From contig CM060194.1 in NCBI GenBank assembly GCA_030549335.1, positions 63,764,547 to 63,828,546 of the forward strand: a DNA stretch of 64,000 nt. Reading direction: 5' to 3'. Shown one piece after another: positions 2,960-56,149 of this stretch; positions within the stretch are counted from its first letter, which is position 1, and the number at the start of each line of letters is the position of its first letter. The position numbers and the translations under genes were made by a program. Origin of the DNA: Pontederia crassipes. Taxonomy: Eukaryota > Streptophyta > Magnoliopsida > Commelinales > Pontederiaceae. The notes under the pieces are model-generated. The model saw nothing but the letters and a program-made list of their open reading frames with translations. It searched no databases and had not been told where the DNA came from.

Positions 2960-5384
2960 TCACATTATCCACTGTAATTTATAATTTTAAAAATAAATAG
3001 AAAATTATTATGTAATATTAAAAAAAGATAAAATGAATAATTGCTTTGAGAAATATGAATATTCAAACTATTTAAAAATATAATTATTATGGAAATATTA
3101 TATTCATTATTTCACAGTTTAAAATTTTTCATATTATAATTTTATATGGAAACAAAAAAGTTAATGGAGGTGATTTTATTCTATTACTTTCTTTTTTTTC
3201 CTATATTTTGAGTTATTTCTCTTTCATGTCATGCACAAATTTATTTAATGAAAAAATGATAACTTAAGTATATTCATTACCTTTAGTTAATTGTAACAAA
3301 TCATAATTATTTTTTAATTTGAAAAACCACATACTTATATCTACTTAACTCCGTTAGAGTGGATAAGAAGAGTCATAATTATTTTTTTCAATTTCAAATA
3401 TCACACCGGCTAACCATACATCTTTAATTATTATTTAGAGTAGGATTTGAAAAAAAACAATATTATTTTCTTATAAATATATGATATTATTTTAGCTAAA
3501 ATAATTATTAATTATTGATAGAAAAATTGTAATATATTCTTTTTAACACACATGCATGAATATAAAATAATACTTATTCTAATATTACAAAAGGCATAAT
3601 ATTTTTTGCAATCATCTTAAATATTTTAAAATATAAAATTCACTTAAATTTATCTTATATAAAATATTTATAGATATAATGTATGGTACAAATAGTAGTT
3701 ATATATTATATATTATAATAAAAATATAATATAATATTTTATTAATATATTTATGATTATTTTTTAAAATATATTTAAATTGTGCGAAGCGCGATTGAGT
3801 TAAACTAGTTAATTATTAATTGTCAATAATGTTGAAGGTTAAACAACTATACATATGCATGTTCCATGAATTCATGTCAATAATGTTAAAGGTTAAACAT
3901 TCGATTTCATGTTCCACCTGCCTGCCAGGATTCTATGAGAAGGTGCGTAACCTTCGTGAAGATGACAGTACGTGTTCCGATATCTGACCTTGGTTTTTTT
4001 AATTCTATGAGAAGGTACTGATTTCTTTGGGATCTATTATTGCACTTTGTTTCTTTGTAGAATGAAAACTCGTGCCTTTAATTTGTGGATCTCAAATATG
4101 AAGCACCAGATACTCGAACAGTGCCTTTGTTTCTTTATCATTTTCTATTTTTTATTTAAAGTTGTATGGAATAATTCTATATCAATATCTCGTGGCCATT
4201 CAATCATAACAAAAATTTTATGACATTTGATTATAATCACGCAAAGACCTCTTCACTAGTCTATATATCTATATAGAAAAACCTAATGCATTGGGAGCTT
4301 CACATTGTAGATTTCATTTTTCTCCAAGTGTTTTGAATTCTGTACACAATTTAACATGCATAAATAAGGTTAGATCTTTCACCTTCCATTTTATCTCTTT
4401 TGTAGCCTCGACTCACTCGTCAATATACCACTCACTCATCTATATATATAATTTTTACTCCCTACAACTCCCGCATTCGTTCATCTATTTAATCCATTCA
4501 CTCAGTGACGGAGACAACATAATTCTGTAAACTTTACATAATTAAGCTCCTCCTAATTTTTTGAAACATTATATATAGTAATATATATATGGAGAATGCC
4601 CTAAATTTTTGAACTTGGCATAATTATAATGCGTTGTTGTATCAATAAGAGAATATATGTGTACATTTATAAAAGATTGTAGTATAACATGTGTTTTTAT
4701 GAATGTATAATATATGTACTAATAAATTTAACTCGTTTTTATAAAAAAAAATCAAATTAATTAGTTGTCATAAATAGTTGCATTTTCTTTTAACATGATA
4801 AACATAAAAAGAAAAAAAGATATGAATGATGAATAACAAACAATTATTTTAATCTAAATAAAATAATAATTATTATTATATGTTGATTCTAATATAATAT
4901 TTTTTATTTCTTAATTTGATTAATAAAATTAATATATTTATTTATTTCTTTTTTATATTATGTACTTGCCCCCGTAATGATCCTGGCTCCGTCCTTGCAT
5001 TCACTCAATTATTTTCCTTCCATGCTTCGCGTCTAATCTTACATGTCTTATATATCTTATATCTTATCTTATATAAAGCTGGATTCAAAGTGGCTGTTTC
5101 CAATTGCTCCTCATTCAGTATTGATATCTATGTTTTTCCTCATTTTTTTGTTATTTATCATTTTTTCCTCATCTTTTCTCATATGGAATATGAAGTAATC
5201 TTATTATAATACCTCCATAGAAAACGTGTGACACTTCAAATAATCATTTTATGCCTTTATCACCTCATTATGATAAGCCATTTAATAGCTCCTCACTCAA
5301 TCTCAAGTCGTCTGGCCTCACCATGTAATAATAATGCCCTCACCCTCAGCACAACACCACCAACCCAGCCATCATCAGCAGATC
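2960..5384. other. AT-rich spacer
   Basis: No recognisable gene. The DNA is AT-rich with decayed repeats. Around 3811-3900 a phrase containing GTCAATAATGTT...AAGGTTAAACA occurs twice, a small local duplication. Short ORFs here have no family resemblance. Confidence 0.55.
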
Positions 5385-6005
5385 ATGTACCATGTACCGC
5401 AACATGTACCGCAGCACAGTCGGAGGGAGAAGCTCAGGTTCCGGGCAGACAGCTCCCCTCCTCCTTTGTCGCCTCCTACTTCGCTTCTACGTAAACCTTC
5501 TAACATGGGAGCGTTCTGTCATCCTTCCTTTCTTCTGTCCTACTACTACTCCGACAACCCTAGCTACTGTGGCCTGGTCCGACAACCCTACTCTCTTCTA
5601 ACATGGATCCAAACGCTCAAACTTTTTCGCCGGACGAGCGCCATCATTCGATGATCTCTCCGCAGTGAGGCTTCTCTTTGTCCCTCTCTTCAATGCCAAG
5701 GCAGCCGCACCAGTTCGGCATTCGGCCGGCTCCACTCAGCCTCTTCACGGGCTATGTTGCCGTACTCAACCGATCCAGGTTCCTAGAGCCCGCGCGGAGG
5801 AGGTGATGCTCTTTGTGGCGATGATGACGTGTTGTTAGATGCGAAACTGATGGAGGAAGCCCTCACGGATCATCGCAGGAACGACTTCTGCAGTGATCAG
5901 GTGGAGCCTTCGGTTCCGAGCGAGTGACAGTAATATTGGAAGAAGACCAAGCTCATTGACATGCTAGATGAGGTGATCACTGAGCTCAAAGATAAACTCA
6001 TTTGA
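5385..6005 (+). pseudogene. BEL1-like homeobox pseudogene (N-terminal half)
   Basis: The order of recognisable pieces follows a BEL1-like (BLH) TALE homeobox protein. First comes MYHVPQHVPQHSRREKLRFR. Then, near 5730-5805, comes FTGYVAVLNRSRFLEPARR, which is the SKY box (SRFLxPAQxLLEE). Near 5944-5990 comes WKKTKLIDMLDEV, the start of the BELL domain (KKxKLxxMLDEVxxRYK). These sit in different frames with several stops between them, and the homeodomain is absent. The gene is therefore dead and truncated at its 3' side. No intron is needed, so the piece could be a first-exon capture. BLH proteins pair with KNOX proteins in the nucleus; this copy cannot. Assignment is from motifs only. Confidence 0.65.
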
Positions 6006-8869
6006 TTACATGTAAACCCAACTTCAATTCACTACTTTTTATATATTCTACTTGCTGATCCAATGAACTCGACGTCCGCTTATCTTTTTGTATCTTAATG
6101 TGATTTATTGATCCACGAGGAAGCAAGTTGTGACTAGAAATTTTGTAATGTTCCATCACGTCAAAGTTTAATTTCTTTGGATGCACTTAACGGATCTTTG
6201 ACACTGTTGATGACATGAAATGCATCGATACCCACCATATAGTTGTTCTATGATTAGGGTTTTGTTTTCTCTTTTCTCTCACTATCTTTGCATCTTAGAG
6301 AATTATATGGACTGAAAGATTTGTTCAGAATTTATTCATATCATTCCCATTCTAAAAAAAATTTGCTCCAACTTAAGAAGGGGTCTATGCACTGATACTA
6401 AGCATGACATGTCTGTAATTTCGTCCATAATTTTTATATTTGTTGTAGTGACATGTCTGTGTTTTCGGAGAAATTATAGATCGTCGAAATCGTCTGTAAT
6501 TCTCATATTTGTTGTAGTGACAACTAACATTGAATTCAATAGTCTTAAATTGCTAAAGAGTCACATATGATTTATAACAGATATCATATATAGGTGTTAC
6601 TTAACAAATACGTATATATTTGTAATAAATAGAAAACTTAATCTGTATGAATCATGACGATTTTATTTATGCATATACAAATCTAGGCCAATAAGAAAAG
6701 TGCAAACATGTTCTTCAAGTATACTATGTTTCTTGAGACTAGGGGCCAAAACCTTTCGACGACACTTCATCTTATTATTGATAGATAACATATATATTCA
6801 ATGGAACCTCGAACATTTTTACAAAGTTCATCCTTGCTCACTTGAAAATCTCGTAGCTGATCAGCCATTTTGTCTTCCTATTTTGAAATCACTCGTGATC
6901 ATTATTCTATGTTATATTTTTCTCATGAAAGGTTGATTTTTTATACATAAAAGAAAAAGGAAAATAATGAAAGAATGATTAAGATCAATTACTTTGAGTA
7001 TTGGCTTGGATGATTGAGTCATCAACCATCATTGTTCTCGAAAATGTTATATAGAAGCTAATGTTGCTCAGAAAATAACGAATGATAAATTTCGTCATAA
7101 TATAACCCATTTTTTTAAAAAGTAACTACTTTATTCTGTTCCATTAAATATTTATAGTTTTAATATAGATAAATGAGGTTACTGAGTATTAGAGCACCTC
7201 GCTCTACGCTTTAGTGTAGAGCGCATATTTCTCATCATTTATTTAATTTAAGAATAATAATTCATTATTAGATTAATAATATACTTCTTAGATGAAATAA
7301 TATATATTTGTTGAGATAATTTGATAATAAAAAAGTATCATCTAAGGCTAAATAAATTATAGTTGTTGAATTAATCATATTTATTAAAATAGCTTGATCA
7401 TGATCATCTGATAATTCGATGATACTAATATTAATCATATTTACTATTTAACACATTTTTTAAATTACTATATATTTATTTTATTAATCTAATTAATAAA
7501 ATCAGTGCTCTACATCCGTTCTACATGAAATGCTCTACTTATACACTTTTCTCTAAATAAATATTTGTCCATATAATGTCGGATTTACACCATCAAATTT
7601 AATAGTTTAAAAACTTTATGAAGCTAAATATAAAAAATGATTGATTTTTTTGTTCTTTAATCCAATCAAAATATGTCACGCCAAATTAAAAAAAATGTGT
7701 AAGTCAGTGATTTTTTGTCCAATAAAGAAAAAGAGAGGCCATATGTTCTACATTTGTTCGCGCAAAACTAATATGTAGCAAAAATAATAGTATTCTTTCG
7801 ACAAAAAAACTAACTAGTCATTATTATTAAATTTTAATTAATATAAGATTAAAATTAATGCTTCCAATAATATATTATTAAAATTAATAGACTAACGAAC
7901 TCTAGTCATTATTATTAAATTTTAAGTATCTAAAAAAGCTTTAAAAAATGGGTGGAAGAATGCCCAATTGTATATGCTTTCGGAAAATGGAGGCCAACAC
8001 CGCTAGATCACAGACTTGGCATTTGACTATATTATATTTGTATATATGATTTATATCTGCTATTCTCATCTACAAGTAGTGAATGGATTGGAAGTTTTAG
8101 TACAATATACTATAAGTGACATTTTATCATATATTTGAGTGACAAGTAGACGCAGGGAAGAGGAAAAGCAAAACCATGGCAGACATGTACTGCGACTAAG
8201 GCAGTGTATTTCAGTTTTTTTTTTTTTTTTTCCTTCAACGCACTGTGAATAAACAAGTTGTGACATCGAAGTGCAAATAGAAAAGAATCTAAATTACCAG
8301 GGCATTCTTTTAAGAATCAAGTTGTCGCAACATTTAGTTAAAGCATTTGCTACCTTCTAGTTTTACAAACCAGATATACTTAATTTGACACATTGGTAGG
8401 TAGGCTTCAACCACATATCCCATGTTCTGGTACAAATGATCTTTATGCTTCAGAAATACATTCTAGAAGATGTGAGACATCATTGATGATACAAGGAAGT
8501 TTATGAAATATATGGTACATCCTAAATAGAGTAACTCTCACAAGGTAGTAGTATACATGCCAAAATGTTCTTTAATATTCTTATTACATCTCAAATGTGT
8601 ATTCTCTAACATGGAGAAGAGGGTGCCAATTCTCCATATGTTTTCATGCTGCAACTAGTGCTGATTATGACACCCAACTCCGCAAATATCCAGAGTGATG
8701 GATCAAAAACTTTTGCGAGAAGTCACCTTGACCTGGTAAATGGCAAACGTCTATATTCATAATTATCACACACACGGTTAAGCCATCAAAATATGGCATC
8801 CTAGTCACTTCGAGAACAACACAAAGGAGACGGAACTTGAAAATATTACCCCTGCCAATGTTGATGCTA
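6006..8869. other. Gene-free stretch with decayed transposon ends
   Basis: Two direct repeats of about 70 bp near 6405-6520 each end in TTTGTTGTAGTGAC, which looks like the end of a CACTA transposon. A MITE-like segment follows at 7190-7537. The part from about 8280 to 8869 directly follows the stop codon of the minus-strand protease and probably includes its 3' UTR. No other gene is supported. Confidence 0.5.
7190..7537. mobile_element. Possible small MITE
   Basis: The left end reads TAGAGCACCTCGCTCTAC. The right end, read on the other strand, starts TAGAGCATTTCATGTAG, so about 7 bp are perfect and the match weakens inward. The interior is AT-rich and non-coding. No convincing target duplication was found, so the superfamily is left open. 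Confidence 0.35.
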
Positions 8870-36503: not shown

Positions 36504-39500
36504 CTAATTGACCAGAACCATGTCATCACCATTTTCAGTCTTGCCCGAAGCTGCAGCTTCCAGCCTTCTCCATGTCAACTCACGTTGTTCTTCCAAGGCT
36601 TTGGCCTTAGCTTCTTTCTCTATGTACTGTCGTTGGCATTCCTCAAAGAGCTCGCTGTCCATGTCCAGAAACATCTTCCGGACATTCGCTGTTAGGCCAT
36701 GAACTGCCTGATTCCAGTGGCCCTGCATGTTCCTCTCCAATGCTTGAAATATAATTGGCAGTATGGCATTCCGGTTTGGGGCAATCAGGCTGACAATGTG
36801 ATCATTATTCCAAAGGAAAAGAGCTCGTTCAGATACCTGACAACCATTTTTCATATTCAGTACAAGTAGGAGATGCATTAGAAGACATGGAAATCTTGTG
36901 GATATGAATGTTTCTGGGGAACAATAAACTAGCAAAATGCTTAGCTAACTTTTAACCAAAAGAAAAAAAAAGAAAAGAATAAAGGAAGCCAGAAAAAGAA
37001 CTTTAGGTCTAGTTCTGACAAGGTCACAGCAAATACAACAACAATAGGTATTGTATGATATGGCCACAATAGAAATAAGATGATTTCCCTTATACATTCC
37101 CTTTGATCTGTTGTATGAGTTTTGCAAATGGCATCGCCTAAGAATAAAGAAATAAAATTATATTCCTTTTGAGTCACTTTCTCTTTTCGAAAATGATATC
37201 CATGCTAAAGAATGCATATGCAGAACTTATATTTCGCAACTCACATCTTCCATAAGTTTTGTATTAGAAACCCTAGCTATGAAGTAGAAAAGTTCCATTT
37301 TCATGAAGTCTGGTATGAATGTACGATCACAACCAGTAAAGATATTATGACAATGCAGATGAGTCCCAGTTATCAAGAGGAAGAGGGTGTCTAACGAAAG
37401 TAAATTAGCAAGTTCTAACAAGGAGTTTCGAACCAGATCTATTTTTTTTTAGGAGATTCGAACCAGATCTATAACTCACATGTATCAAGGACAACACATT
37501 TTCTCTTCTATGAAATATGGATATTATTATCAAGATACTACTCAAAAGTTCAAACAAGATTTCAGGCTGTTTTTTAGCTTCAGTTACAAAGTGCAACTAA
37601 GAAAGTGACAGGTGAAAATAATTACTTCATTTTTAAAATGTCTAGAAATACAACTAAGAAATAATGCAAGTCAGAATATAGTTTAAACTAAAATAAATAA
37701 GCCAAGCAAACTTGGCTTCCAGCAAGGCTCACAACAAACTTGTAAAGTCATCTGCCTCTAAGAAAGCAAAAGATGGAACTTTCTTCAAAATTCTAACTAA
37801 GAGCTTGATTTCCATGCTAGTCTCCATAATTGGCAGTTATAGAAGCAATTTCCTTGAGTATTAACTAACTATTTCTTAGTGATCCATAAGAGATCTTGCC
37901 TGTTCAATCTCTTTATTAAAATAGTTACAAAACTAAAAGACGCTATGAATTTCCATGTAATTGTTTATCCAGGAGCTTGATTTCCATGCTAGTCTCCGTA
38001 ATTGGCAGCACAGAAGCAATTTCCTTATGCATTAACTAACTATTTCCTAGTGATTCATAACAGATCTTGCCTGTTCAATTTCTTTAAAACTAAAATACAC
38101 TACAAATTTCCATGTAAGTGTTTATCTATTGTAGAAATTCTTGATTCAGTCAATTGGGCTAAAACATTGAAGTAATTTTTGCACAATATGCATCATGACT
38201 CTTTAATCAGTCAATTGGGCTAAAATACTCTTTAATTTTTGCACAATATTCTATTTATTCTCTGCTGCTGATTTGCTTGTGGGTTTGTTTGTGGACATCA
38301 TTCTGAAGTTAGGGGGTGTGCCGGAGAATCTGAGACTTTGGTCAGTCGCTTCCTGGCTTTTTAATCCGTTCACATTCACCATTGGCACTAGAGGAAACTG
38401 TGAGCCTCTGGTTTGTGCAGTTGTCCTCTGGATAATCTGTTGCCTTATGAAGGGTATAACTTCTACATCTTCATCTTTGTTTACTGTCCATTGAAATCAA
38501 TTCTTGATTCCATGATATCCTTGAACATCAATCTTAGGTATGGATTCTTGTAACTGCTCGTTGGCTTTCATTATTTTAAGGACTTGTTGCCTTGTTGGGT
38601 TACATTTAAATGAAGGCACACCATGAAAGAATGATTTCTGGTAATTTACATAGCCAACATAAGTAGTTTGCATTTGTTTATTGTGATTATTCTTATGAAG
38701 AATCAATTAAGCATGTCATTCCAACACCAATAATATAGTTTTTCTGCCTTTCTCTATACTTTCAAAGAGTTGTGTGAAAATTATTTTGATTTAAGTTACG
38801 TTTTTTACCTAAATTTAAGTCATCAATGAACCTTTTACTGATTTTTCTTGTTCATCTGGTACATAGACAAGGTAGTTCAGGCAGCATTTTGGTATGGGAT
38901 TATTGTCCATTCCGAATCTACCCTATAATATATGCTCTTCCTATCGTGTTCGTTCTAAGCAGACAAACAATCAGTTCTTCAGGAAAGCCTGCCCTTGGGC
39001 AGTGGAGTTCTAGTGAAAATAACGCACAGAGTACTTCGTGTACAAGAGCATCAAGTTCATTTATATGCTGGAGACCTATGTTGGTGTCTATGAGAAGCGT
39101 TCTAACATGGGAGACAATTGCATTTGGCTTATTTTCTGGAGCTACATTTTCCCTGTCAACTGCTTTTTTCTTCTATGTCTATGGATGGGACTTTCTGAAT
39201 GAGGCATTATTGTATCATCTCACACGCACCGACCCAAGGCACAATTTTTCAATATATTTCTATCACATTTATCCCTCTTCAAGTTTCCATGACCTGAGCA
39301 TAGCGCCTGATGTTTATGATGCCCTTTCATAGGGTAAACCAGTAGTTGCACTGGAGTCAACAATAATCTCTCATGGTATGTTATCCTCCTAACTCCGCCT
39401 ATGTTTTATAGCCGGTCCCAAGCCCGGATAAAGGAGGAGGGTTGTGTTAGGCCCTGACAGCCAGCGTAAAATTCTGTCGAATCTCATGAACATGGATCAT

Positions 39501-42013
39501 CGAATGCGTCGTATGATCTATGTAGCCGACCCCACCTAGTGGGATAAAGCTTTGTTGTTGTTGTATGCATCATGACTCTTGTTCTAATTTATTTTAAAGG
39601 TATCATAACTGTCAACCAAAGAGAACAAACACGTACAGGGCAACTTAGGAGATCAAAGTGGCATCTCCTGTTTGTACACAAGCTTAAGCATGTAACATAT
39701 GATCTATATGTCATTTAAATAGACCTCGTTAAATATAGAAAATAAAATTTCCAAACTTTCCAAATATAAATATATTAGACAAGGTTGAAAAGTTTAAAAT
39801 AATACATTGCCCTGTGTCATAAATGGCACTCAGTGGTCATTGTTCTGTCCCTTTATGAAAACATGTTTCTTGTGCCATAGAATCTTTGTGACTGAAATTA
39901 GTCAATATGCTTGAAGGAAAACAAACTTACAAAACAAAATATTATGTCTAGTACTAATTATAAGATTGACATCATCCTCTCTGTTTCTGGGTTCATCCTA
40001 TTATAGTAGAACAACTTAATGTGTGAAAAATCAAATGTGGAGGCTGCCTTCTCAGAAATAAAAAATCACAACAGAGAAGGAGAAAAGGAAATAAAGAAAA
40101 AAGAAATATATGAGAAACAAAGGAGAGGATATCTCCACAAAAAAAAGGTTAATTTTGTTTGCAGGTTTTCTTAGTCGATTGAGCCCTTTGTTATCCATGT
40201 ACTCTGGGTAGTTTTATGATCATAGCGACTCTTTGGATCTGATCAAGAATAAGTTTTTTGTTGCAATTAAGATCGAGTATTGACTTGGGATTTGTGACGG
40301 TTTCCATTGGAATCTGAAAACAAGGGGAAGATGATTGACTGTGATGCATATCATACTTTGGGAGGAATAATAAATAAACAACTTTTTTAGGGGAGAACTA
40401 GAACAAAATTATGTGAAATATTTCTCATAACATAAAAAATAGTAAAGGTGAATACAAATTTATGATATTTCAATTTTATTTGAGCTCCACAATTCCATCA
40501 TAAGTTCCAAGCGTAGATTAACAAGGGTTGTCAGAGGAATATATCCTTCACTTAAAACAGCAATGTTGCAATATTTATCTCGTCACTTGAAAATATATGT
40601 TACTCTGTCAATTTCTAGGTTTATGTTTGGTCTTCTAAGAGAGATAGATGATTCAAAATGACCACTTTCCAGGGACAACGAAGATCAGTAGGATTGTATA
40701 ACTTATATACACTTGGATGACTAGTTTATAATCATCCTTCAACCACTAGTTGAATACTGACATTAGGCAGAAATTTCAATGTTTTACAGTTAGAACTGCA
40801 TGAATATGGAAGAGGCACCTACCTGAAAGTGTGAGCTATTGAGGCATCTTGCAATCTGCTTGAACAAAGGAACCATGCACCGTTGGAACTCCACAGATTG
40901 TGTGGCCTCGAGAACCTCTTCCAGCTCACCAAGAAACAGCACCTCCTTCTGACAGTTGGTTACTGGCCAGTACTTGAGCAACCCCCTGATGATCGTGTCT
41001 GCAAGCTTGTAGTCCTTCTCCACGAACTGCGTGATACAGTAAGCCAGTTGCTGGTGATATAAGCTTACTGACTTGGGCTTGTGGAGAGGGAGAAGGGCGC
41101 GCACCAGGAAGAGCTTGTGCTCCTCCTTCATGGGCAAGGCGAAGCCATTGATGATGCTGCCAAGAATCTCTAATAGTTCGCCGATGCCACTGTGGCGCTG
41201 GGTCTCGAAAATGAAGCGGTAGAAGATGTTGTTAATGGCCTTGCGGATGAATGGGCGGTGAACCATGAACTTCCCATAGATACGGTGGAGAATTGTCTTG
41301 AGGTACTCGCGTTCGCGGGGATCCTCGGAATCAAAGAGGTCGAGCAGACGGAGCACGAAAGTGTGGTCGACAAATCGCTTGGCCACCTTGGTATCAGTGT
41401 CCGAGGAGACTATGTATCGGAGGAAGAGCTCGTAAACGAGTTGGAGGTGCGGCCAGGAGGGTTCGAGGTAGGGGTCCTCCTCTTCCGGGTCCGCGCTGGC
41501 GGCCTCTGAAGAGCCTGTGTTCTCGTGGGACGCCGGGGGAAGGGGGCGAAAGATGTTGACAGCGACGGTGCGGACGAGCTCTTCCTGCACGGGCTCGGAG
41601 AGGCGGCCGGAGCCGGACTGGACAAAGTCGATGAGCTCCAACAGGGTCTGGCGCTTGGTCTCTTTCTCGCGAGGGTACTTGAGGGTGTCGGAGAAGTCGA
41701 AGGCCACGGTGCAGATCTGGAGCTTACGGAGGAAGAGTGCCTGCCTCTCGGGCACGGGGACGTCGCGGAAGAGGGATAGGGCCTCGATCGACGGCGGCGC
41801 AGGCGGCCCGACCGCCGAGGAGACGGGCGGAGGGGGAGGGGCCGGCGCCGCGCCACCGCCAGGGACGGAGGAAGAGAGGGTGGTCCGGGTGGCGTGGTTG
41901 ACGGTAATGGCGGAGGCAACAACGGGGGGTGCGGCGGCAGCGGCGGGGTTGTTCTCGCCGGCGTCCGGTTTGGGGCCCTTCCGGCCGCCCAACTTGATGA
42001 TCCTGTTAAACAT
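36504..42013 (-). CDS. PP2A B' (B56) regulatory subunit
   Basis: This is a regulatory subunit that selects substrates and location for protein phosphatase 2A. Two exons, 42013-40823 (397 codons) and 36836-36504 (110 codons plus stop), join in phase 0 to 507 aa. The start [17 protein letters not shown] resembles the alpha/beta group of plant B' subunits. A Pro/Ala-rich linker (about 23-75) is followed by the all-helical B56 domain, with [74 protein letters not shown] and [21 protein letters not shown]. Exon 2 completes it with [18 protein letters not shown] and ends in a Lys/Glu-rich helix. All core motifs are present and length is usual for the family. The 4-kb single intron carries foreign gene pieces and a SINE. 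The isoform name is not certain. Confidence 0.93.
37801..38130. repeat. 172-bp tandem duplication in PP2A intron
   Basis: Copies starting at 37801 and 37973 both open with GAGCTTGATTTCCATGCTAG and continue through GATCTTGCCTGTTCAAT. They differ by scattered changes and small gaps. Confidence 0.85.
38255..39375 (+). pseudogene. Chimeric PIGM / pseudouridine-5'-phosphate glycosidase fragment
   Basis: Two host gene pieces are joined in the PP2A intron, on the opposite strand. The first is from GPI mannosyltransferase 1 (PIGM), the ER enzyme that adds the first mannose to GPI anchors. Exon-like part 38255-38453 has [20 protein letters not shown]. After a retained GT-AG intron, part 38867-39271 has [26 protein letters not shown] (one base missing between them) and [20 protein letters not shown]. 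The second piece starts at about 39272: [13 protein letters not shown], a TAG, then [14 protein letters not shown], the N-terminus of plant pseudouridine-5'-phosphate glycosidase (PUMY/PsuG). It stops at an exon-end GT. The kept intron means the donor was genomic DNA or unspliced RNA. The copy is dead. Confidence 0.8.
39391..39563 (+). mobile_element. Au-type SINE, shortened copy
   Basis: It begins AACTCCGCCTATGTTTTATA and contains GGATAAAGGAGGAGGGTTG and CCGACCCCACCTAGTGGGAT. It ends in a (TTG)n tail, the features of plant Au SINEs. Compared with the full copy at 54655-54884 it lacks about 50 bp in the middle. It lies directly behind the PIGM/glycosidase chimera and just before a 17-bp direct repeat. 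Confidence 0.85.
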
Positions 42014-42072
42014 TGCTGCTTCAGTTGCCGCTGCCGCGGCGGACGACGACGCCGCCGGAGGCGGAGAACACG

Positions 42073-42081
42073 AAACCCTAA
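42073..42081 (+). promoter_or_regulatory. Telo-box in PP2A B' leader
   Basis: AAACCCTAA, directly extended by CCCTAAC, lies about 60 bp upstream of the PP2A ATG. Telo-boxes are common near the start of plant genes active in dividing cells. An effect here is inferred. Confidence 0.4.
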
Positions 42082-42450
42082 CCCTAACTGAACAGAATAT
42101 AGGAAAAAAGAACCCTTTTTTGTGCGGTTCTCTCCGAGGAGGAGGAAGAGGATGACGAGGGACTAAATCTTAATAAGGAGAACAGTTGAGAAGGCGAGAG
42201 AATAATGGATCGGAGAATAAGAAGAAGAATGAAGGAACTGGGGATGTTCCCAATCCATAATTCTGGGACAAAAATATGAGAAAAAGGATTATTAAGAACA
42301 AGGCTAAATTATAATTTGGGTAAAAAAAAGGGGAGTTCTTTCTGCTTTGAGAGGCGAGAGAAATATAAAACCAAAGGGAATAGTTGCAGATGGATTGATT
42401 GGAGAGAGAGAGAGAGTGAATAAGGACAGTTGGATGGATTAGTTGCTTGG

Positions 42451-42458
42451 TATTTATA
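42451..42458 (-). promoter_or_regulatory. TATA box of PP2A B' gene
   Basis: On the minus strand the motif reads TATAAATA, about 440 bp upstream of the ATG. It predicts transcription starting near 42420 and a leader of about 400 nt. The (GA)n tract would then lie at the start site. Confidence 0.5.
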
Positions 42459-44234
42459 AAGGTAATTAAACTACCTGCTTATGGACAATAATAGGATTAG
42501 TTCCAGTTATTTAATTAATTAAGAAGGGTAGTAATAGTAATAATAATAGTGCTTAGTTGTTGGTCCTATTTCGTTGGCTCGGCATCATGCCGATAGAAGA
42601 GATCTCAGATCGAACGAATCGGCCCATTCTTCTTCCTATTTTGTTTGGTAGTTTTTGTTCTTTTGTCTTCCTTCTTAAACTTAAGACTACAATCTTGTAC
42701 TCTTTTAATTAGCCACAAAGTGATAACTCAAGACCCAATACATTGATGTATGAGTAGATCAAACCCATAACTGGTTAAACTAGTAAAAGCTCACCGGTTT
42801 GACTCAATGCCCAAACATTTTACCTCTTAACGTTCTAATTAACTTGGAGGCATGGAAAATGAAAAAAAGAAAACTAACCAGCAGTGACTGAACTATCTAA
42901 CGGTGGTGGCGTTGCAAATTTTTATTATACGCTCATATACATGTGTATATATTATATACAGATAAGTAAGCATACATGAGAGATTTGGTCTCCTAGATTC
43001 AGCTCAAATTGTCATGTAAGTTATTCTTTGCAATTGTTTTTGTTTACCTTGTGAAATTATTATATCATAAACATTAATTAAGATCTTGTCACTTCTAAAT
43101 GAAGCTAAAAATCAATCAATTGAATAGATAATATATTCGTGATACAATATTTTTCTTAATTACATAAATTTGCAACATATGTTGGGTCCCCACCAATTCC
43201 GAATCCCAAGGAGCTCTTCTATGCAGAATACAAAAGTTCGCGAGGCCTACAGTGAAACAAAAATTACAAGGACGCAACGTGATGCAGATAAAAATGTCGA
43301 CAAGTAGTTCAACTCGGAAACTCTCGTCACGCAATTGAACGGCCAATTCCAATAATCAGAAATTGGAACAAAAAGAGGGAGAAATGGGGGGAACAAGAAA
43401 ATCTGGGAAAACCGAAATGAGCCTGCAACTCATCAACCAGAGCCGGAGAAACCGCAGTCGCGCTATTGTTTTTCAACTTGTGTAGCAAAATGGCAGTCCC
43501 GTGCGTGGAGACACTTCAGGTCATATAATATTTGACCTTGTGTTACATCATAAAGGAACATGCAAGCAATACCGTAAAAAATCTTCGATCCAAACCATCC
43601 AACAGTGCTAATATCATGAGAACTAATGTATCTGCCAAATCCAACAATGGCTAAAAACTAATCTACAAAATCTCACAGTTTGAGATCTTAATGTCAGCAG
43701 TTAGGTCAAGAGATGATGCCAACAAGCGTATCAAAAGAAAACGAGGTCAGCATAGACTGAAGTACCCAAAACAAAGCACCCACGCAAGCCAATCTGCAAT
43801 TAGAGCCAACAACGAAGCATCCAACTTCGGTCTGCGAGGCAGGGCAAATTGCTCATCGGAAGAAGCTCAAAAACTGCCTCCAGCACAGAGTGAACGCAAA
43901 ATGACAAATGCCTGGCCATTGGATGTGCACAGTAAACATGATGAGTCCATACATCATTTACAAATGCATCAACCAAGCCAAATGCAAAAAAGAAGACACA
44001 TAAATCACAGGAGTGCGCCAACTAGCAACAACCACAGAATTCCAAAGATAACACCAAGTTACAATAGCAACGGTTCAGATAGTTTTGCTGCCACCTTAAA
44101 CAGTGATCTGGTTCAAGCAGGTACAATATCCTTTCTGATCAAGCATTAAAGTGATAGCTAACAGTACTACAGCCGAAATACTGAAACGATACAGCCAAAC
44201 TCTAGAAGAAACTGCATAAAACAGTCTGAATTGA

Positions 44235-50262: not shown

Positions 50263-53200
50263 TTATTCTGGCAAGAGCGGGAGACGAGAAACACTGGAGC
50301 CAGCATTCCCATGAGCTATGGAATTGAGACCCGCTTGTTTGCTTGACGGCGGTCCATTGTTCGTGGTCGATGGCCCTTTCTTGTTTAACTTCAGAGGAAG
50401 TATCTGCAACCTGGAGTTCAACTCGGTACCAGACTTCTCTGCGGCTAGCTGATAGCTCTCAACAAGCTCCAGTTGTCGAGCAATGATCTCCGAGCACCTA
50501 GGAAGTAGTTCCACAGGTTCTCCACCGGGGATTACTATGTATTCTATAGCCAATCGCACCTCCTGATGCACAAATAAAGCAAGCCATTTGAGTTGAAGTA
50601 ATAACGGAGACAGCTATCATTTGATATTTTGAAATGAAAACATCAAGTTTGTTTAAATTTATTCAGCAAACTGAAGTAAATATGATGCACATAAACTTGA
50701 GTCCAATTTACGATATTATGCTTGTAAATCTAAGACTGCAAATCCAAAATCTATGAGAACCATGAAACTTAACATTTGCCCAAGTCTCAGTCTTTACATC
50801 TATAAGGTAGAGTAAATTCAACATTTCTCCTAAAAAAAGAGTAAATTCAACATTTAAATGGATATCTTCTTCTCCAATGCCTATTATATGTTTTCCAACT
50901 TTAAAATCAAGCTGTCTCACATAGAGAGGGAAAAAAGAACAGCAACATTAACCATTAATAAAGATCTTCGATCATAGAAGGTGTTACTGATGAAATAAAG
51001 TACATTAGTGGCGCATAGTCTGAACATGTGTATTTTCTTCTCGAGATCAAGACAATTCCTGCAATATTTTTCATAGGATGTCGAGGAATAATCCTCCCTA
51101 TAATACTTTTTTTAGTGTCTTAATATTTACTTTGTCATTAATTCGTTGATCCATGTTCATAAGATTCGACATGATTTTATACTGGCTGTCGGGGCCTAAC
51201 ACAACCCTCCTCCTTTATCCGGACTTGGAACCGGCTATAAAATATAGGCGGAGTTTCATTTAGTGAGAAAATGGTAGAGAATCGTTTGAGATGGTTTGGT
51301 CATGTTCAGAGAAGACCATTAGATGCGCCAGTAAGAAGAGTAGATCAAATAATTTGGAGTCCGATTAAAAGAGGGAGAGGGAGGCCAAGGCGGACACTTG
51401 GCGAACTAATAGAGCAAGATCTATTGGTGAATAATATACCGAAAGGTTTGGTTACTAATAGAGCGGAATGGCGTCGTATGATCCATGTAGCCGACCCCAC
51501 CTAGTGGGATAAGGCTTTGTTGTTGTTGTTGTATTAAACTGCTACAACCATAGTTCAATCCAGTACTTAAGAAATTAAATAAAGATAAAAGTAACAAGGA
51601 AGCCAATTATCGTATTAGAAAAGTCAGCTGCGGTTGGCCATTAAGAAGAAAATTTTGACAAGGCGTTACTCACCTCCAAGGCATCAAGTTCCTCCAGAGT
51701 TGGTATTCTCTTAGGTGCATTATCCTCAACTTCAATATCCTTGCCAATACTATGGGATGGACTATTTAGAACAGGACCAAAATTGTCCATCCCAAGAATC
51801 ATTTTAACAGCCTTTACCATTTGGGCCATTGTGTTCTCCTGACAGATAAATATAATGAGCTTAACAAATACAGACAACAAATGCAATATTGCTTCACTGT
51901 GAATCCAACCAGAACATTGCAACACGGAGAATGGTCATAATAGGAAGTTACCTTGATAACAAATATAGGCAACTCATGAAATTTCGCTACACTGCGAATC
52001 CAAGGATTTTGATTCATTTCATAACTTGATGCCAGAATCGCATTTGCCATTCCAATGTCATCAGTCACATCAATATCATCCTCAAAACCCATTACAGTAG
52101 CCACTTGCAGCAAATCAGCTTCCAGTATCTGATTAAAAGATGAATGCAGTGGATAATTTTACAATCATTTCTAAGGTTTCATCAACATTTTAGAACAAAC
52201 TACTTAACCATATGATCTTCCTATAAATTTACCAGCAAAAGAAAACATGAGAATAAACAATACATGTCAACTATGGTGATCTAACATATATATCAAAATG
52301 ATCAAATTGCTACAGTTGACTAACATTGTCATGATTAAAAAATATCTCCATATAGACCAATAAAAAATGACTAGAATGTGTCATAGAACTAAACTAATTT
52401 TGGATTTTTATATTTCAGCAAAATCATTGTTCTTTTAGAGGAGAATTCCCCGTGTTAAAGAAGGAACAGGTGATTGAATTGTGTATGAGGAATGAGCTAC
52501 AGTTATAAAGCAAGTATCTGTTGCCTTTTTGCATAAGAACAAAGAGGACATGCAACTTCCAGTTCTTTCTCAAAATAATAACTTATCTGAATTATTTAAT
52601 TCTCAACGGAACCCACTATAGGACCATTGCAGCATTCACATTTTTTGTTGAAAGTGAAAGAGAGTGATAAAAGGATGGCTACCAGCCTTGTGCAGCCATC
52701 CACCGTGATAAAACATGAATTTCAGCATTCACAATTAACATTTTTCAACCTACACACTACATCTTGATATTACCTTGTATGTGTAGACGCGAACAGGTGA
52801 GGTCCCCGAGGTACTTCTCCCTTTCTTGTCAGAATCAACTTGACCAGGGTGCATCTCAGTCCCTTTATGGCTGATTAAAGGCTCCTGCTTATCATACTTC
52901 TCGAGTATTTGAACTGGAATATGATTTGTCAAGTCATTGACTTCCATCTTCCTCACTTCAAAGAGAGGTGGTCTCCCTGATTCCATATAAATAATATAAC
53001 CATTTTGTAACAAAACCACAAACTTTACCGGATAATCATGAAACAGGCAACAATAAATAACAATGAGGAAACCTGCTAGAATAGCATCAACAGTAGCTTC
53101 TAACTTATGATGAACTCTGCACTCAGTTTTGGATATCATCTCAACAGCACATGTAAATGTAGGAGGTCCTTTTCTCTCAAGTATTGTTTTCTGTACTTTC

Positions 53201-56149
53201 CTTTTCCGTGCCTCATCATCACCAAGAGTAACACTCTGTTATCATTGATGATTAGACTGTTAGATTATCAAATATTACAAAAGTCAGGTAGTCAAGATGG
53301 CATGGAATAACAGTAATGAAACTGGTAAATCAAAACAACAACAATGTGTTAAAAATTTGTTCATTATCACGTTAGTAATACAAAGCAATATAACTGGGAT
53401 CACCATGGCACTAAGGAACAAGTGCATGATTTCCTTATGTTTTTCTTTTTTACAATCTAAAGGCAAGCAAGTATAAGGCCAGATTAATATATGAGACAAA
53501 ATTATTTGTGGCAGTCATTAATAAAAGATGTCATAAAATTATTCAAAAAATATTTTGAAATGTGGTTGGAAAAAGGGATGCAAATAGCACGATTTATGTG
53601 ATTTATGAAAATTATGCATCTCACAACTATCATTCACTATACTATACTCCCTCCAGCAAACCAATTTTCTTTTGGTATTTTAACTCAGTATTATGCAGCA
53701 GTGAGCAGCCATTGCAAAATCATTCAGGATTTGAGAGTAGCTATAAAAAGAAAGATAGGTTATATGTGCAGCTCATGAATCATTCTCATTAGACCTAAGA
53801 ATAAACTAAATCTTGATGAGAGCACTGAGCATGTGAGCTATATAACATTGAAAGTGAGACAAAGGCTTTCAATAAAAACAGAAAGTGAGAGAAAGGGGAA
53901 GGATAACTTGATACCTCTATCCCTCCAACAAGAGCCTGTAACGAAGGGTTTTTTATTATGCTATCTATTGTTACACCATGGGCTGTCCCAACAAGTTGAA
54001 CACCTCTTTGAGCAATGGTACTGGCTGCCATAGCTTCAAGTTCTGTTCCAATTTCATCAATTATAATAACCTCAGGCATGTGATTTTCAACGGCTTCGAT
54101 CATAACCTGAAAAAGCATTCAAACTTCAAATTAGGAGTCGTTCAGGTAGAAATGCATAACTAGAAAATCCACTTGGACATACTGCTTTCTGATATATGAT
54201 ATTTAGAGAAGTGAAACAACCAGGAAGATACTCACATTGTGCTGCATGTCAACATTTGGAACCTGCATTCTCCTTGCACGCCCAATTCCAGCATGAGGTA
54301 CATCTCCGTCTCCTCCAATCTCGTTGGAGGTGTCTACAATGACAACACGTTTCATGTGCTCATCGGCTAGAACTCTGGCTATTTCCCTGCATGAAAAAAC
54401 TTTTATCAACACAAATGGATCTCAGTACTTATTTTCGTAACATTTAGATTGCAGTATGACATTCTTTTTCTTTGCCTAACATTCTGCATATGTACTGCAT
54501 TTTCATGAAAGTGGTCATACAGGAACAACTGAAATCCTTAATCGATTCATGGATACTTGATCACAAATGTGTACCAAAAGTTGAATAGGTGCCATGTGAT
54601 TCAAATTACAATGTGGGTGTACTACAAAATGGTAAATGACAGAGAAATGGAACAACAACAACAACAACAAAGCCTTATCCCACTAGGTGGGGTCGGCTAC
54701 ATGGATCATACGACGCCATTCCGCTCTATTCGCGTTACTTACGGGTAACGACCTAGCATTAACACAATATATTCGTTGATCCATGTTCATAAGATTCGAC
54801 AAGATTTTATGTTGGCTGTCGGGGCCTAACACAACCCTCCTCCTTTATCCGGGCTTGGGACCGGCTATAAAATATAGGCGGAGTTGACAGAGAAATGGAA
54901 CATTGAGGAAAAATATATCTATGGAATGGGAAATAAATTATGCAAATCTGAATTCACCAACTTTGTTGCAAGAATCAAAAACAACAAAAGAGTAAATTGT
55001 GTTGTCCTAACTTCCAACAATATATTCAAGATAAGATGTGGATTCAATGCTTACACTACAGTGGAAGACTGAATGGCATATGCATGAAAACTGTATGTCG
55101 ACCATTTCCACATGCTTCTATTTCATTTTTCAAATAAATAGTGGGATGTAACATGAGAAACAGATTCACAACTCATTTGATTACCTAATCAAGGTTGTCT
55201 TCCCAACTCCAGGAGGTCCAATTACCAGGATTGAACCTCCACTCTCAACCAAATCATGGATCATCGCGGCACTACCAGATATGGCCCGACCTACACGACA
55301 AGTAAGGCCAATTATCTGCATCTTGCGGTTCCTAATGGCGCTGATCCGGTGCAATGACCGGTCAATACCAGACCGATTGTCATCCGAGAAATCACCAACC
55401 TGTGCAACAACCTTAGTTACATAAGTTCAAAAGCAAACATTCATTAATCATGGACAACCAAGTATAGATGCATAGATGGCAGGATGATCCTTCCAATAAA
55501 TGTTACCACGTCCCATCGTATGAATTAAATCCTAAGTAACATAAATTCAGAAGTGCATAATGATCTACCACAAAGTCTACGTTGAATAGATGCAAGCAAG
55601 CACAAGTTAACGCAACTATAAACCATTTATGTGAAAGCATTAGCTAAAATTATGTGTTGTGATCTAATAAATCTGGCACAATATCGAAACCTTGGAAATC
55701 GCATGTCGAAGGTCCTCAACGCTGACGGTCTCCTCCGACATGGTCCAGTCCCCGGACGGGAACCGCGCGATGGGCCGCCTGCCCAAGTCCATCACAACTT
55801 CGATCAGCTCCCGCACATCCGAATGCCGAACGAGCTCTCTCCGCAGCCTCGATGGCACCACCTCCAGGAACAGCTCCAGCTCGTCGTGCAGAGCAACCGC
55901 AGCACCGGAAGCTACGGTTTCGTCGAATCCGGTCCTCGTCGTCGAGGCGGTGGCGGAGCTTCCGTTAGTGCCGCTGCTCCAGAGGGCGCAGCGGTCGCCA
56001 TCGGGCCTCCGGATCGACGGGGCGATCGCCGCCTTCCGGGACGAGCTCGGCGACCGGCGCCGCAAGGGGGAGGCAGAAGAACAGGAGACGACGAGGCCAC
56101 AGGTCGGCGTTTGGAATCGGTAGGAGCCGGGAACCAAAATCTTCAACAT
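50263..56149 (-). CDS. ycf45/SPD1-like P-loop ATPase, probably plastid
   Basis: Nine exons join in frame to 674 aa: 56149-55691, 55399-55185, 54386-54236, 54106-53915, 53235-53073, 52976-52774, 52128-51952, 51838-51674 and 50562-50263. The N-terminus is rich in Ser, Arg and Ala and could be a plastid transit peptide. The ATPase core is clear: Walker [10 protein letters not shown] (214-222), a middle part with [18 protein letters not shown] and [10 protein letters not shown], and Walker [10 protein letters not shown] with Asp292-Glu293. It is followed by [21 protein letters not shown], which resembles the SpoIIIAA-like ring ATPases. This is the nuclear family related to the algal plastid gene ycf45 and to Arabidopsis SEEDLING PLASTID DEVELOPMENT 1. 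The part after exon 5 is less conserved. The exact role is unknown; plastid location is inferred. Introns 2 and 8 hold SINE and LINE pieces. Confidence 0.9.
51141..51255 (-). mobile_element. 5' half of an Au-type SINE
   Basis: This 115-bp piece matches the first half of the complete SINE at 54655-54884, almost base for base, from AACTCCGCCTATATTTTATA to ATCAACGAAT on the minus strand. It stops there and lacks the 3' tail. It lies head-to-head against the LINE piece to its right. Confidence 0.85.
51262..51536 (+). mobile_element. 3' end of a LINE
   Basis: An open frame (51271-51504) encodes [36 protein letters not shown] and [13 protein letters not shown], the usual C-terminus of plant LINE reverse-transcriptase proteins. 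A (TTG)n tail follows. Only the last part of the element is present, as expected for 5' truncation. Its last 75 nt are identical to the tail of the SINE at 54655-54884. Confidence 0.85.
54655..54884 (-). mobile_element. Complete Au-type SINE in ATPase intron 2
   Basis: A 230-bp element reads from AACTCCGCC to a (TTG)n tail on the minus strand, the same direction as the host gene. It is flanked by the perfect 18-bp duplication TGACAGAGAAATGGAACA (54637-54654 and 54885-54902). Length, tail and long target duplication all fit a SINE. The perfect repeat suggests fairly recent insertion. Confidence 0.95.

What the first reader, a model, noticed from the sequence alone, without database searches (positions are those of the whole stretch)
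38187..39580. Fused PIGM and pseudouridine-glycosidase pieces ending in a SINE tail, flanked by a 17-bp repeat
Seen: PIGM exon, retained PIGM intron, PIGM exon, then the N-terminal exon of pseudouridine-5'-phosphate glycosidase, its splice donor, and an Au-type SINE ending in (TTG)n. Immediately after the tail comes TATGCATCATGACTCTT, which also occurs at 38187-38203 just before the block. Known: LINE-type retroposition leaves such duplications beside the 3' tail. Inference: a read-through RNA from a glycosidase locus with a SINE in its intron was retroposed using the SINE tail, joined to PIGM RNA by template switching. This would be SINE-tail-driven movement of host gene pieces, akin to transduction. 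A complication is that about 45 bp at the 5' edge repeat the DNA just upstream of the first 17-mer. DNA-level capture (Helitron or Pack-type element) or local rearrangement stays possible.
Basis: partly seen in the sequence, partly recalled or inferred. Interest (0 to 1): 0.85.

Follow-up and report, generated by a model that had tools for sequence, protein, structure and literature searches.

The report
SINE-tailed chimera of two host RNAs
In a plant-like genome a short mobile element was copied into a new site together with partly spliced RNA pieces of two unrelated genes, and some other copies of that element show similar gene pieces, so it may be a repeated source of gene shuffling.

Summary
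Block 38204-39563 is bounded by an exact 17-bp duplication. A paralogous site on contig C11 (L023) lacks the block and has a single 17-mer with one mismatch: an empty site. The block is RNA-derived: the PIGM piece (source: the C5 copy) and the glycosidase (PUG) piece each cross an exact exon-exon junction, while a later PIGM intron is retained. PUG runs 15 nt into intron 2, then abuts the exact 5' end of a full-length SINE whose (TTG)n tail abuts the second 17-mer. Neither PUG gene found has a SINE at that place, so read-through is not supported; template switching from SINE RNA onto host pre-mRNAs is. The 5' edge is a patchwork copied from the flank just upstream. Other copies act alike: L029 is a second two-gene + SINE chimera with a splice junction and visible back-and-forth switching. 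C27 to C14/C8 and the L071 family look like 5' transductions, which a 2026 review calls unreported in plants. A type-P1 twister-like motif (under Rfam's cut-off) sits exactly at the SINE 5' end.

The parts
38187..38203 (+). target-site duplication, left copy (17 bp)
   Evidence: single copy with one mismatch at the empty site L023
38204..38254 (+). 5' filler: patches copied from 38146-38164 and 38173-38189 of the upstream flank, joined by short stretches without a clear source
   Evidence: (score 27.5, shuffle maximum 14.0)
38255..38453 (+). PIGM piece, two exons spliced exactly (16 nt of upstream exon to 38270 | next exon from 38271)
   Evidence: source C5 copy (L009)
38454..38866 (+). retained PIGM intron (GT...AG, limits set by reading)
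38867..39273 (+). next PIGM exon, cut inside the exon; last 2 nt (TC) shared with PUG
39272..39290 (+). 3' end of PUG (pseudouridine-5'-phosphate glycosidase) exon 1
39291..39375 (+). PUG exon 2, spliced exactly to exon 1; a C-to-T change gives a stop at 39330
39376..39390 (+). first 15 nt of PUG intron 2 (GTATGTTATCCTCCT)
39386..39445 (+). type-P1 twister ribozyme-like match (RF03160, 59.4 bits, E 1.7e-12, under the gathering score 67.2); expected cleavage point (recalled) = SINE 5' end
39391..39563 (+). full-length SINE with (TTG)n tail
39564..39580 (+). target-site duplication, right copy

Best explanation
A single target-primed retroposition made the block. LINE machinery (probably RTE clade, because of the TTG tail) nicked the site and primed on the tail of a full-length SINE RNA. 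It copied that RNA to its 5' end, which is probably set by a twister-like ribozyme. It then jumped to a partly spliced PUG pre-mRNA ending 15 nt inside intron 2, then with 2-nt microhomology to a partly spliced PIGM pre-mRNA from the C5 copy, and finally onto the target flank just upstream of the duplication, copying two patches of it before joining. Shown: TSD, empty site, two exact splice junctions, retained intron, full-length SINE, flank-derived filler. Inferred: order of events, the enzyme, ribozyme activity, nascent pre-mRNA as acceptor.
For: TSD plus empty site. Exact exon-exon junctions in both host pieces. No SINE at +15 of intron 2 in either other PUG match. All pieces in sense orientation; no TSD between them. 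SINE 5' end exact. Insert is young: 3 substitutions of its own where C5=C6=C12, while the flanks are 94.7% identical to the empty-site locus over 4149 columns, 100 of them mismatches. Independent second case L029 (C13): a TSD encloses 714 bp of one locus (C3), two further A/B switches with 6 and 2 shared nt, a spliced piece of another gene (C6, 100%), and the SINE joined inside an exon.
Against: Of 69 other SINE copies looked at, 44 have an ordinary adjacent TSD, 6 a short extra, 2 a host piece inside the TSD, 17 were not settled; in the 40-copy C1 sample none had a host piece with its TSD. RNA ligation before reverse transcription would look the same at the PUG-SINE joint. A lost PUG allele with the SINE cannot be excluded. 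No LINE partner was identified.
Confidence: 0.72

Rival explanations
1. One reading: a PUG allele carried this SINE in intron 2; its read-through RNA was retroposed from the SINE tail (5' transduction), with one template switch to PIGM RNA.
For: The mechanism seems to occur here: C27 holds the SINE in an intron-like place with its own 11-bp TSD, and C14 (L045) and C8 carry the same exon-like piece + intron start + SINE in other contexts. L071-family copies on C4 and C13 show a spliced kinase exon pair + intron start + SINE. PUG too ends in an intron, 15 nt after a donor.
Against: Both other PUG matches lack the SINE there, and the search found only 3 places for this piece, the window included.
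Confidence: 0.2
2. RNA ligation first: the ribozyme leaves a 5'-OH on the SINE RNA, and the host tRNA ligase joins it to a fragment of host RNA; the ligated RNA is then retroposed.
For: Twister-like motif at the SINE 5' end; the joint to PUG has no shared bases. A chloroplast isoform of plant tRNA ligase circularises hammerhead retrozyme RNAs in vitro (passage in PMC7761336).
Against: L029 alternates A-B-A-B with a 6-nt shared TTGATG, which ligation does not explain; PIGM-PUG has a 2-nt overlap; cleavage was not tested.
Confidence: 0.06
3. DNA-level capture (Helitron, Pack-type element) or rearrangement.
For: A retained intron looks genomic.
Against: Exact loss of one PIGM intron and of PUG intron 1; TSD and empty site of LINE type. 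Element termini were not searched for.
Confidence: 0.01
4. Two events: a PIGM-PUG retrocopy first, the SINE later beside it.
For: Both kinds of insertion exist.
Against: No TSD lies between PUG and the SINE; one TSD pair encloses all. Ordinary copies carry their TSD at the SINE 5' end (44 of 69).
Confidence: 0.01

Closest known systems
Tripartite WEIRD/Mg-SINE/MGL chimera of Magnaporthe (PMC2104539; abstract, outline and part 1 of the Results section seen)
   Same: Three RNAs fused, two template jumps, 14-bp direct repeats.
   Different: There the 3' anchor is a LINE and the cargo a noncoding RNA plus a truncated SINE; here the anchor is a full-length SINE and the cargo two partly spliced protein-gene RNAs.
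Mammalian LINE-1 chimeras with small RNAs, Alu and mRNAs (PMC13174262; abstract, outline and passages seen)
   Same: Fusions inside one TSD pair; template switching or ligation discussed.
   Different: Anchor is LINE-1; its mRNA cases recurrently join at splice sites (cis or trans splicing proposed), here joints lie inside exons or an intron.
5'-transducing SVA elements (named in the review PMC13317346, passages seen)
   Same: Host sequence upstream of a non-autonomous element, as in our C27 and L071 cases.
   Different: Human SVA; [quoted passage not shown]
Twister at the 5' end of RTE retrotransposons (one sentence, 'in preparation', in PMC7761336, passages seen)
   Same: 5'-terminal twister; our SINE also has the (TTG)n tail that PMC3747384 (passages) gives for RTE LINEs of flowering plants.
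   Different: Here it heads a SINE; activity untested, score under Rfam's cut-off.
L1-like retrocopies in dicots (PMC4838847, passages seen)
   Same: RNA-based duplication with TSD.
   Different: Poly(A)-tailed hallmarks; 'template switch' occurs 0 times in its text; its one intron-holding case lay between LTR segments.

Membership tests
LINE-mediated template-switch chimera | whole block inside one target-site duplication, empty site known | tested here: met
LINE-mediated template-switch chimera | pieces from separate loci, fused in sense orientation, 3' piece a retroelement with its tail at the TSD | tested here: met
LINE-mediated template-switch chimera | cargo copied from RNA (introns precisely absent) | tested here: met
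   one PIGM and one PUG intron absent exactly; another PIGM intron retained
LINE-mediated template-switch chimera | driving LINE identified | not tested
5' transduction (read-through) for this block | source locus with the SINE at the same distance in the PUG intron | tested here: not met
   absent at +15 in both other PUG matches
5' transduction (read-through) for L045 | source locus with the SINE and its own TSD beside the same upstream piece | tested here: met
   C27, TSD TATCTATTTTG, 102 of 102 bp of the head identical
5' transduction (read-through) for L045 | daughter SINE derives from the source SINE | tested here: inconclusive
   SINE body of L045 differs from C27's at 8 sites and not at all from an ordinary copy (L053); later decay at C27 or a switch within the SINE could explain it
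type-P1 twister ribozyme (RF03160) | Rfam gathering score | tested here: not met
   59.4 against 67.2 bits, though E 1.7e-12; 11 of 11 SINE-bearing sources given matched, at 44.8-63.4 bits
type-P1 twister ribozyme (RF03160) | self-cleavage | not testable with these tools
   needs the bench
RTE-mobilised SINE | (TTG)n tail and TSD | tested here: met
   tail rule from PMC3747384
RTE-mobilised SINE | 3' end shared with a resident RTE LINE | not tested
   no genome search left
Au SINE | similarity to the published Au consensus | not tested
   no consensus at hand; PMC3747384 says Au-like SINEs end in T tracts, which does not fit the TTG tail
Helitron or Pack-type capture | captured genomic DNA with its introns kept | tested here: not met
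Helitron or Pack-type capture | element termini around the block | not tested
   no search for termini was run

The most novel reading that the evidence does not exclude
A SINE family with about 4,950 copies holding its exact 5' 32-mer, RTE-like at both ends (twister-like 5' end, TTG tail), works as a recurrent exon-shuffling engine. Its ribozyme-set 5' end is the docking point at which reverse transcription jumps onto nascent, partly spliced host pre-mRNAs. Uncleaved co-transcripts give 5' transductions, and some headed SINEs become mobile lineages of their own.
Probability: 0.45. Interest if true: 0.85.

Novelty: new variant of a known kind. Interest (0 to 1): 0.74.

Why it matters
It gives a junction-resolved case, with empty site, of a SINE carrying pieces of two unrelated genes into an intron of a third, plus signs that this recurs in the same genome. 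That would add an RNA-level, SINE-driven route to plant exon shuffling, which is usually credited (recalled) to LTR elements, Pack-MULEs and Helitrons, and offers candidate plant 5' transductions, which a 2026 review says are unreported. The twister-like 5' end makes a testable link between ribozyme cleavage and gene capture.

Tried and rejected
Rejected: DNA-level capture (exact splice junctions); chance 17-mer; separate SINE insertion (no inner TSD); a SINE at +15 of PUG intron 2 in the genes found; trans-splicing (the PIGM-PUG joint lies inside exons, the PUG-SINE joint 15 nt inside an intron).

Led nowhere or undecided: a source for the 42-bp extra of L082 outside its own site (none with up to 3 mismatches; 27 nt of it copy its own flank). 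Filler of L049, L066 and L085 did not beat shuffles (P 0.41, 0.054, 0.416). TSDs for L028, L032, L038 and L054 were not found in 1.5 kb nor in about 3 kb more. Thirteen of 40 C1 copies were not settled (broken or missing 3' end, microsatellite, SINE next to SINE, or no TSD in 900 bp). (110-bp flanks of 13 of the 17 unsettled copies) was not decisive, because the query stopped at the SINE; only 3 of the 17 were then queried across the joint. No TSD for the C8 copy of the L045 piece in the stretch held. Pfam gave no convincing family for the two L029 source pieces. No paper on plant SINE-host gene chimeras was noticed in the listings of ten searches; that library lacks most subscription journals.

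Rows dropped: L006, L007 and L008 duplicate L042, L028 and L029 and were not counted.

Full report
CHECK. The 17-mer TATGCATCATGACTCTT stands at 38187-38203 and 39564-39580. A paralogous region on contig C11 (L023, reverse strand) runs through the site with one 17-mer (one mismatch) and no insert: window 37746-38203 aligns to 4582-5039 at 97.8%, and window 39566-43179 to 5025-8703 at 94.4%. So the block 38204-39563 plus one 17-mer was gained on the C12 side.

PIECES. The genome (1.13 Gb, 43 contigs, not named) gave four PIGM-like loci besides the window (C5, C6, C12 and a diverged one on C6). The insert matches C5 best (993 of 1003 aligned sites, against 965 of 995 for C6, 945 of 981 for C12 and 862 of 990 for the diverged one); 19 sites are shared by insert and C5 against C6=C12, 3 changes are the insert's own and 6 are C5's own. 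The alignment also shows C5 and the insert sharing a 1-nt deletion in the coding region that the other three lack, so the source copy was itself decaying. The first 16 nt of the PIGM piece are the end of the upstream exon, joined exactly to the next exon; in all four loci that exon end is followed by a GT donor and lies several hundred bp before the next exon. The next intron (38454-38866) is retained. The PUG piece is 19 nt of exon 1 joined exactly to exon 2, then 15 nt of intron 2. PIGM and PUG share 2 nt (TC) at their joint. One frame is open across the joint up to a stop at 39330, made by a C-to-T change; the PIGM part is broken further up, so this may be chance.

SINE. In other copies the SINE begins with AACTCCGCCTATG, usually with its TSD directly before it. 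In the window that start is 39391, directly after the PUG intron piece. Neither other PUG match (C12, C11) has a SINE at that place. The window SINE body differs from an ordinary copy (L053) at 6 sites.

5' EDGE. 38204-38254 contains 38146-38164 and 38173-38189 again, as two exact patches. Best alignment to the 150-bp flank: 27.5, against a maximum of 14.0 in 500 shuffles. Of six other SINE copies with short extras, L082 (27 nt exact; 27.0 against 12.0) and L041 (20.5 against 16.5) clearly, and L056 weakly (10.0, shuffle maximum 11.5, P 0.01), also copy sequence from just upstream of their TSD; L049, L066 and L085 do not beat shuffles. L085's extra repeats the SINE's own start instead. A last template jump onto the target flank would give this; repair by an end-joining polymerase would too.

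IS IT ALONE? I classified 69 non-window SINE copies: 29 top-scoring ones and the first 40 listed on contig C1. TSD adjacent: 44 (20 + 24). Short 5' extra of 10-42 nt: 6 (3 + 3). Host-derived piece inside the TSD: 2 (L029 and L045, both in the first set; none in the second). Not settled: 17 (4 + 13). L029 (C13) has TSD GAAGGATGACTAGCAT 855 bp before the SINE. Inside lie 714 bp matching C3 at 98% (exon plus unspliced intron by reading) and 18 + 93 bp matching C6 at 100% across an exact exon-exon junction. Between them the copy goes A, B (14 nt), A (22 nt), B, with 6-nt and 2-nt overlaps and a short repeat within A: a record of repeated switching. The SINE is joined inside that exon with 2 shared nt (AA); the source exon has no SINE there in C6 or C5. 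L045 (C14) carries 102 bp found unchanged at C27 beside the same kind of SINE, which there has its own 11-bp TSD; C8 carries 95 bp of it and a SINE with other flanks. Against a simple daughter relation, the L045 SINE body differs from C27's at 8 sites and equals L053's; decay at C27 or a switch within the SINE could explain it. Three of the 17 unsettled copies were queried across the SINE joint. L032: about 252 bp match C5 (99%) and C6 (97%) up to the SINE boundary and stop; C25 shares the joint. L071: a kinase-like exon (MAP3K-like by recall; Pfam Pkinase only E 0.0047, under its cut-off; best PDB hit E 0.24) with 36 nt of intron, present at C8 without the SINE and at seven other places with the joint (C23, C12, C2 over the full query; C13 twice, C4 and C10 over the last 130-146 nt). 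On C4 and on one C13 copy that exon is preceded by the same 16 nt, which continue its reading frame, instead of the intron: spliced, by reading; the second C13 copy lacks them. L105: C8 matches up to 3 nt short of the SINE; another place on C7 is identical over the whole query with the SINE. For L032, L071 and L105 no TSD was seen, so they are probable, not proven.

RIBOZYME. Rfam gives one match in 38187-39600: type-P1 twister at 39386-39445, E 1.7e-12, 59.4 bits, under the gathering score of 67.2. All 11 SINE-bearing sources given to one search show it at the SINE 5' end (44.8-63.4 bits). The consensus starts ccuuUAAcgCcGCC; from recall, twister cuts between U and A, which is exactly the SINE start. 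Outer stem P1 falls in the flank: in the ten alignments shown 0 to 3 of its 4 pairs are not standard, 3 in the window, so activity is open. PMC7761336 has one sentence on twister at the 5' end of RTE elements, and PMC3747384 gives (TTG)n tails to plant RTE LINEs. The SINE therefore looks RTE-like at both ends (inference).

MECHANISM. The PIGM piece has an upstream intron removed and a later one kept, and the PUG piece has intron 1 removed and ends in intron 2, as in transcripts being spliced while made. This suggests nascent pre-mRNAs as jump acceptors (inference). The PUG-SINE, L071 and C27 joints lie 15, 36 and 40 nt after a donor-like GT, which fits either nascent 3' ends or SINEs inserted early in introns; I cannot separate these. 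For the window, the PUG genes found favour switching.

CONTEXT. The insert lies, antisense, between two exons of a PP2A B56 gene (40790-42169 and 36504-36944, minus strand; PF01603 5.7e-147 and 7.2e-35).

NOVELTY. Template-switch chimeras are known in mammals and fungi (PMC13174262, PMC2104539). A SINE as anchor, partly spliced protein-gene RNAs as cargo, signs of recurrence, flank-copied filler and a twister-like SINE head are what I did not find described. [quoted passage not shown] the whole word SINE occurs 0 times in its main text there (a word-start count of 1 stands in the listing). Ten searches of an open-access library showed no plant case in their listings; that is not proof of absence.

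Noticed in passing
window 39386-39445 and SINE copies in L027, L029, L031, L045, L048, L051, L053, L060, L072, L083, L090: Type-P1 twister ribozyme-like motif at the SINE 5' end, under Rfam's cut-off but E 4.7e-7 to 2.2e-12; predicted cut (recalled) equals the SINE start.
   Followed up: partly
L060 (C27), L045 (C14), L059 with L106 (C8): Same exon-like piece + intron start + SINE at three places; C27 has the SINE's own TSD: a possible plant 5' transduction lineage, though the C27 SINE differs from L045's at 8 sites.
   Followed up: partly
L071 (C1:656949), C23, C12:38598323, C2:23343210, C13 (two), C4, C10, and C8 without SINE: Kinase-exon-headed SINE in several copies, two of them spliced to 16 nt of the previous exon: a possible headed SINE lineage.
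   Followed up: partly
L085 (C1:2766669-2767829): The 11 nt between TSD and SINE repeat the SINE's own 5' start, as if its end was copied twice.
   Followed up: partly
L009 (C5) and window about 38896: The PIGM copy on C5 shares a coding 1-nt deletion with the insert and has two more indels: a decaying but once transcribed and spliced paralogue.
   Followed up: partly
window 51141-51255 and 54668-54885: Further copies of this SINE on the minus strand, found by BLAST; TSDs not examined.
   Followed up: no
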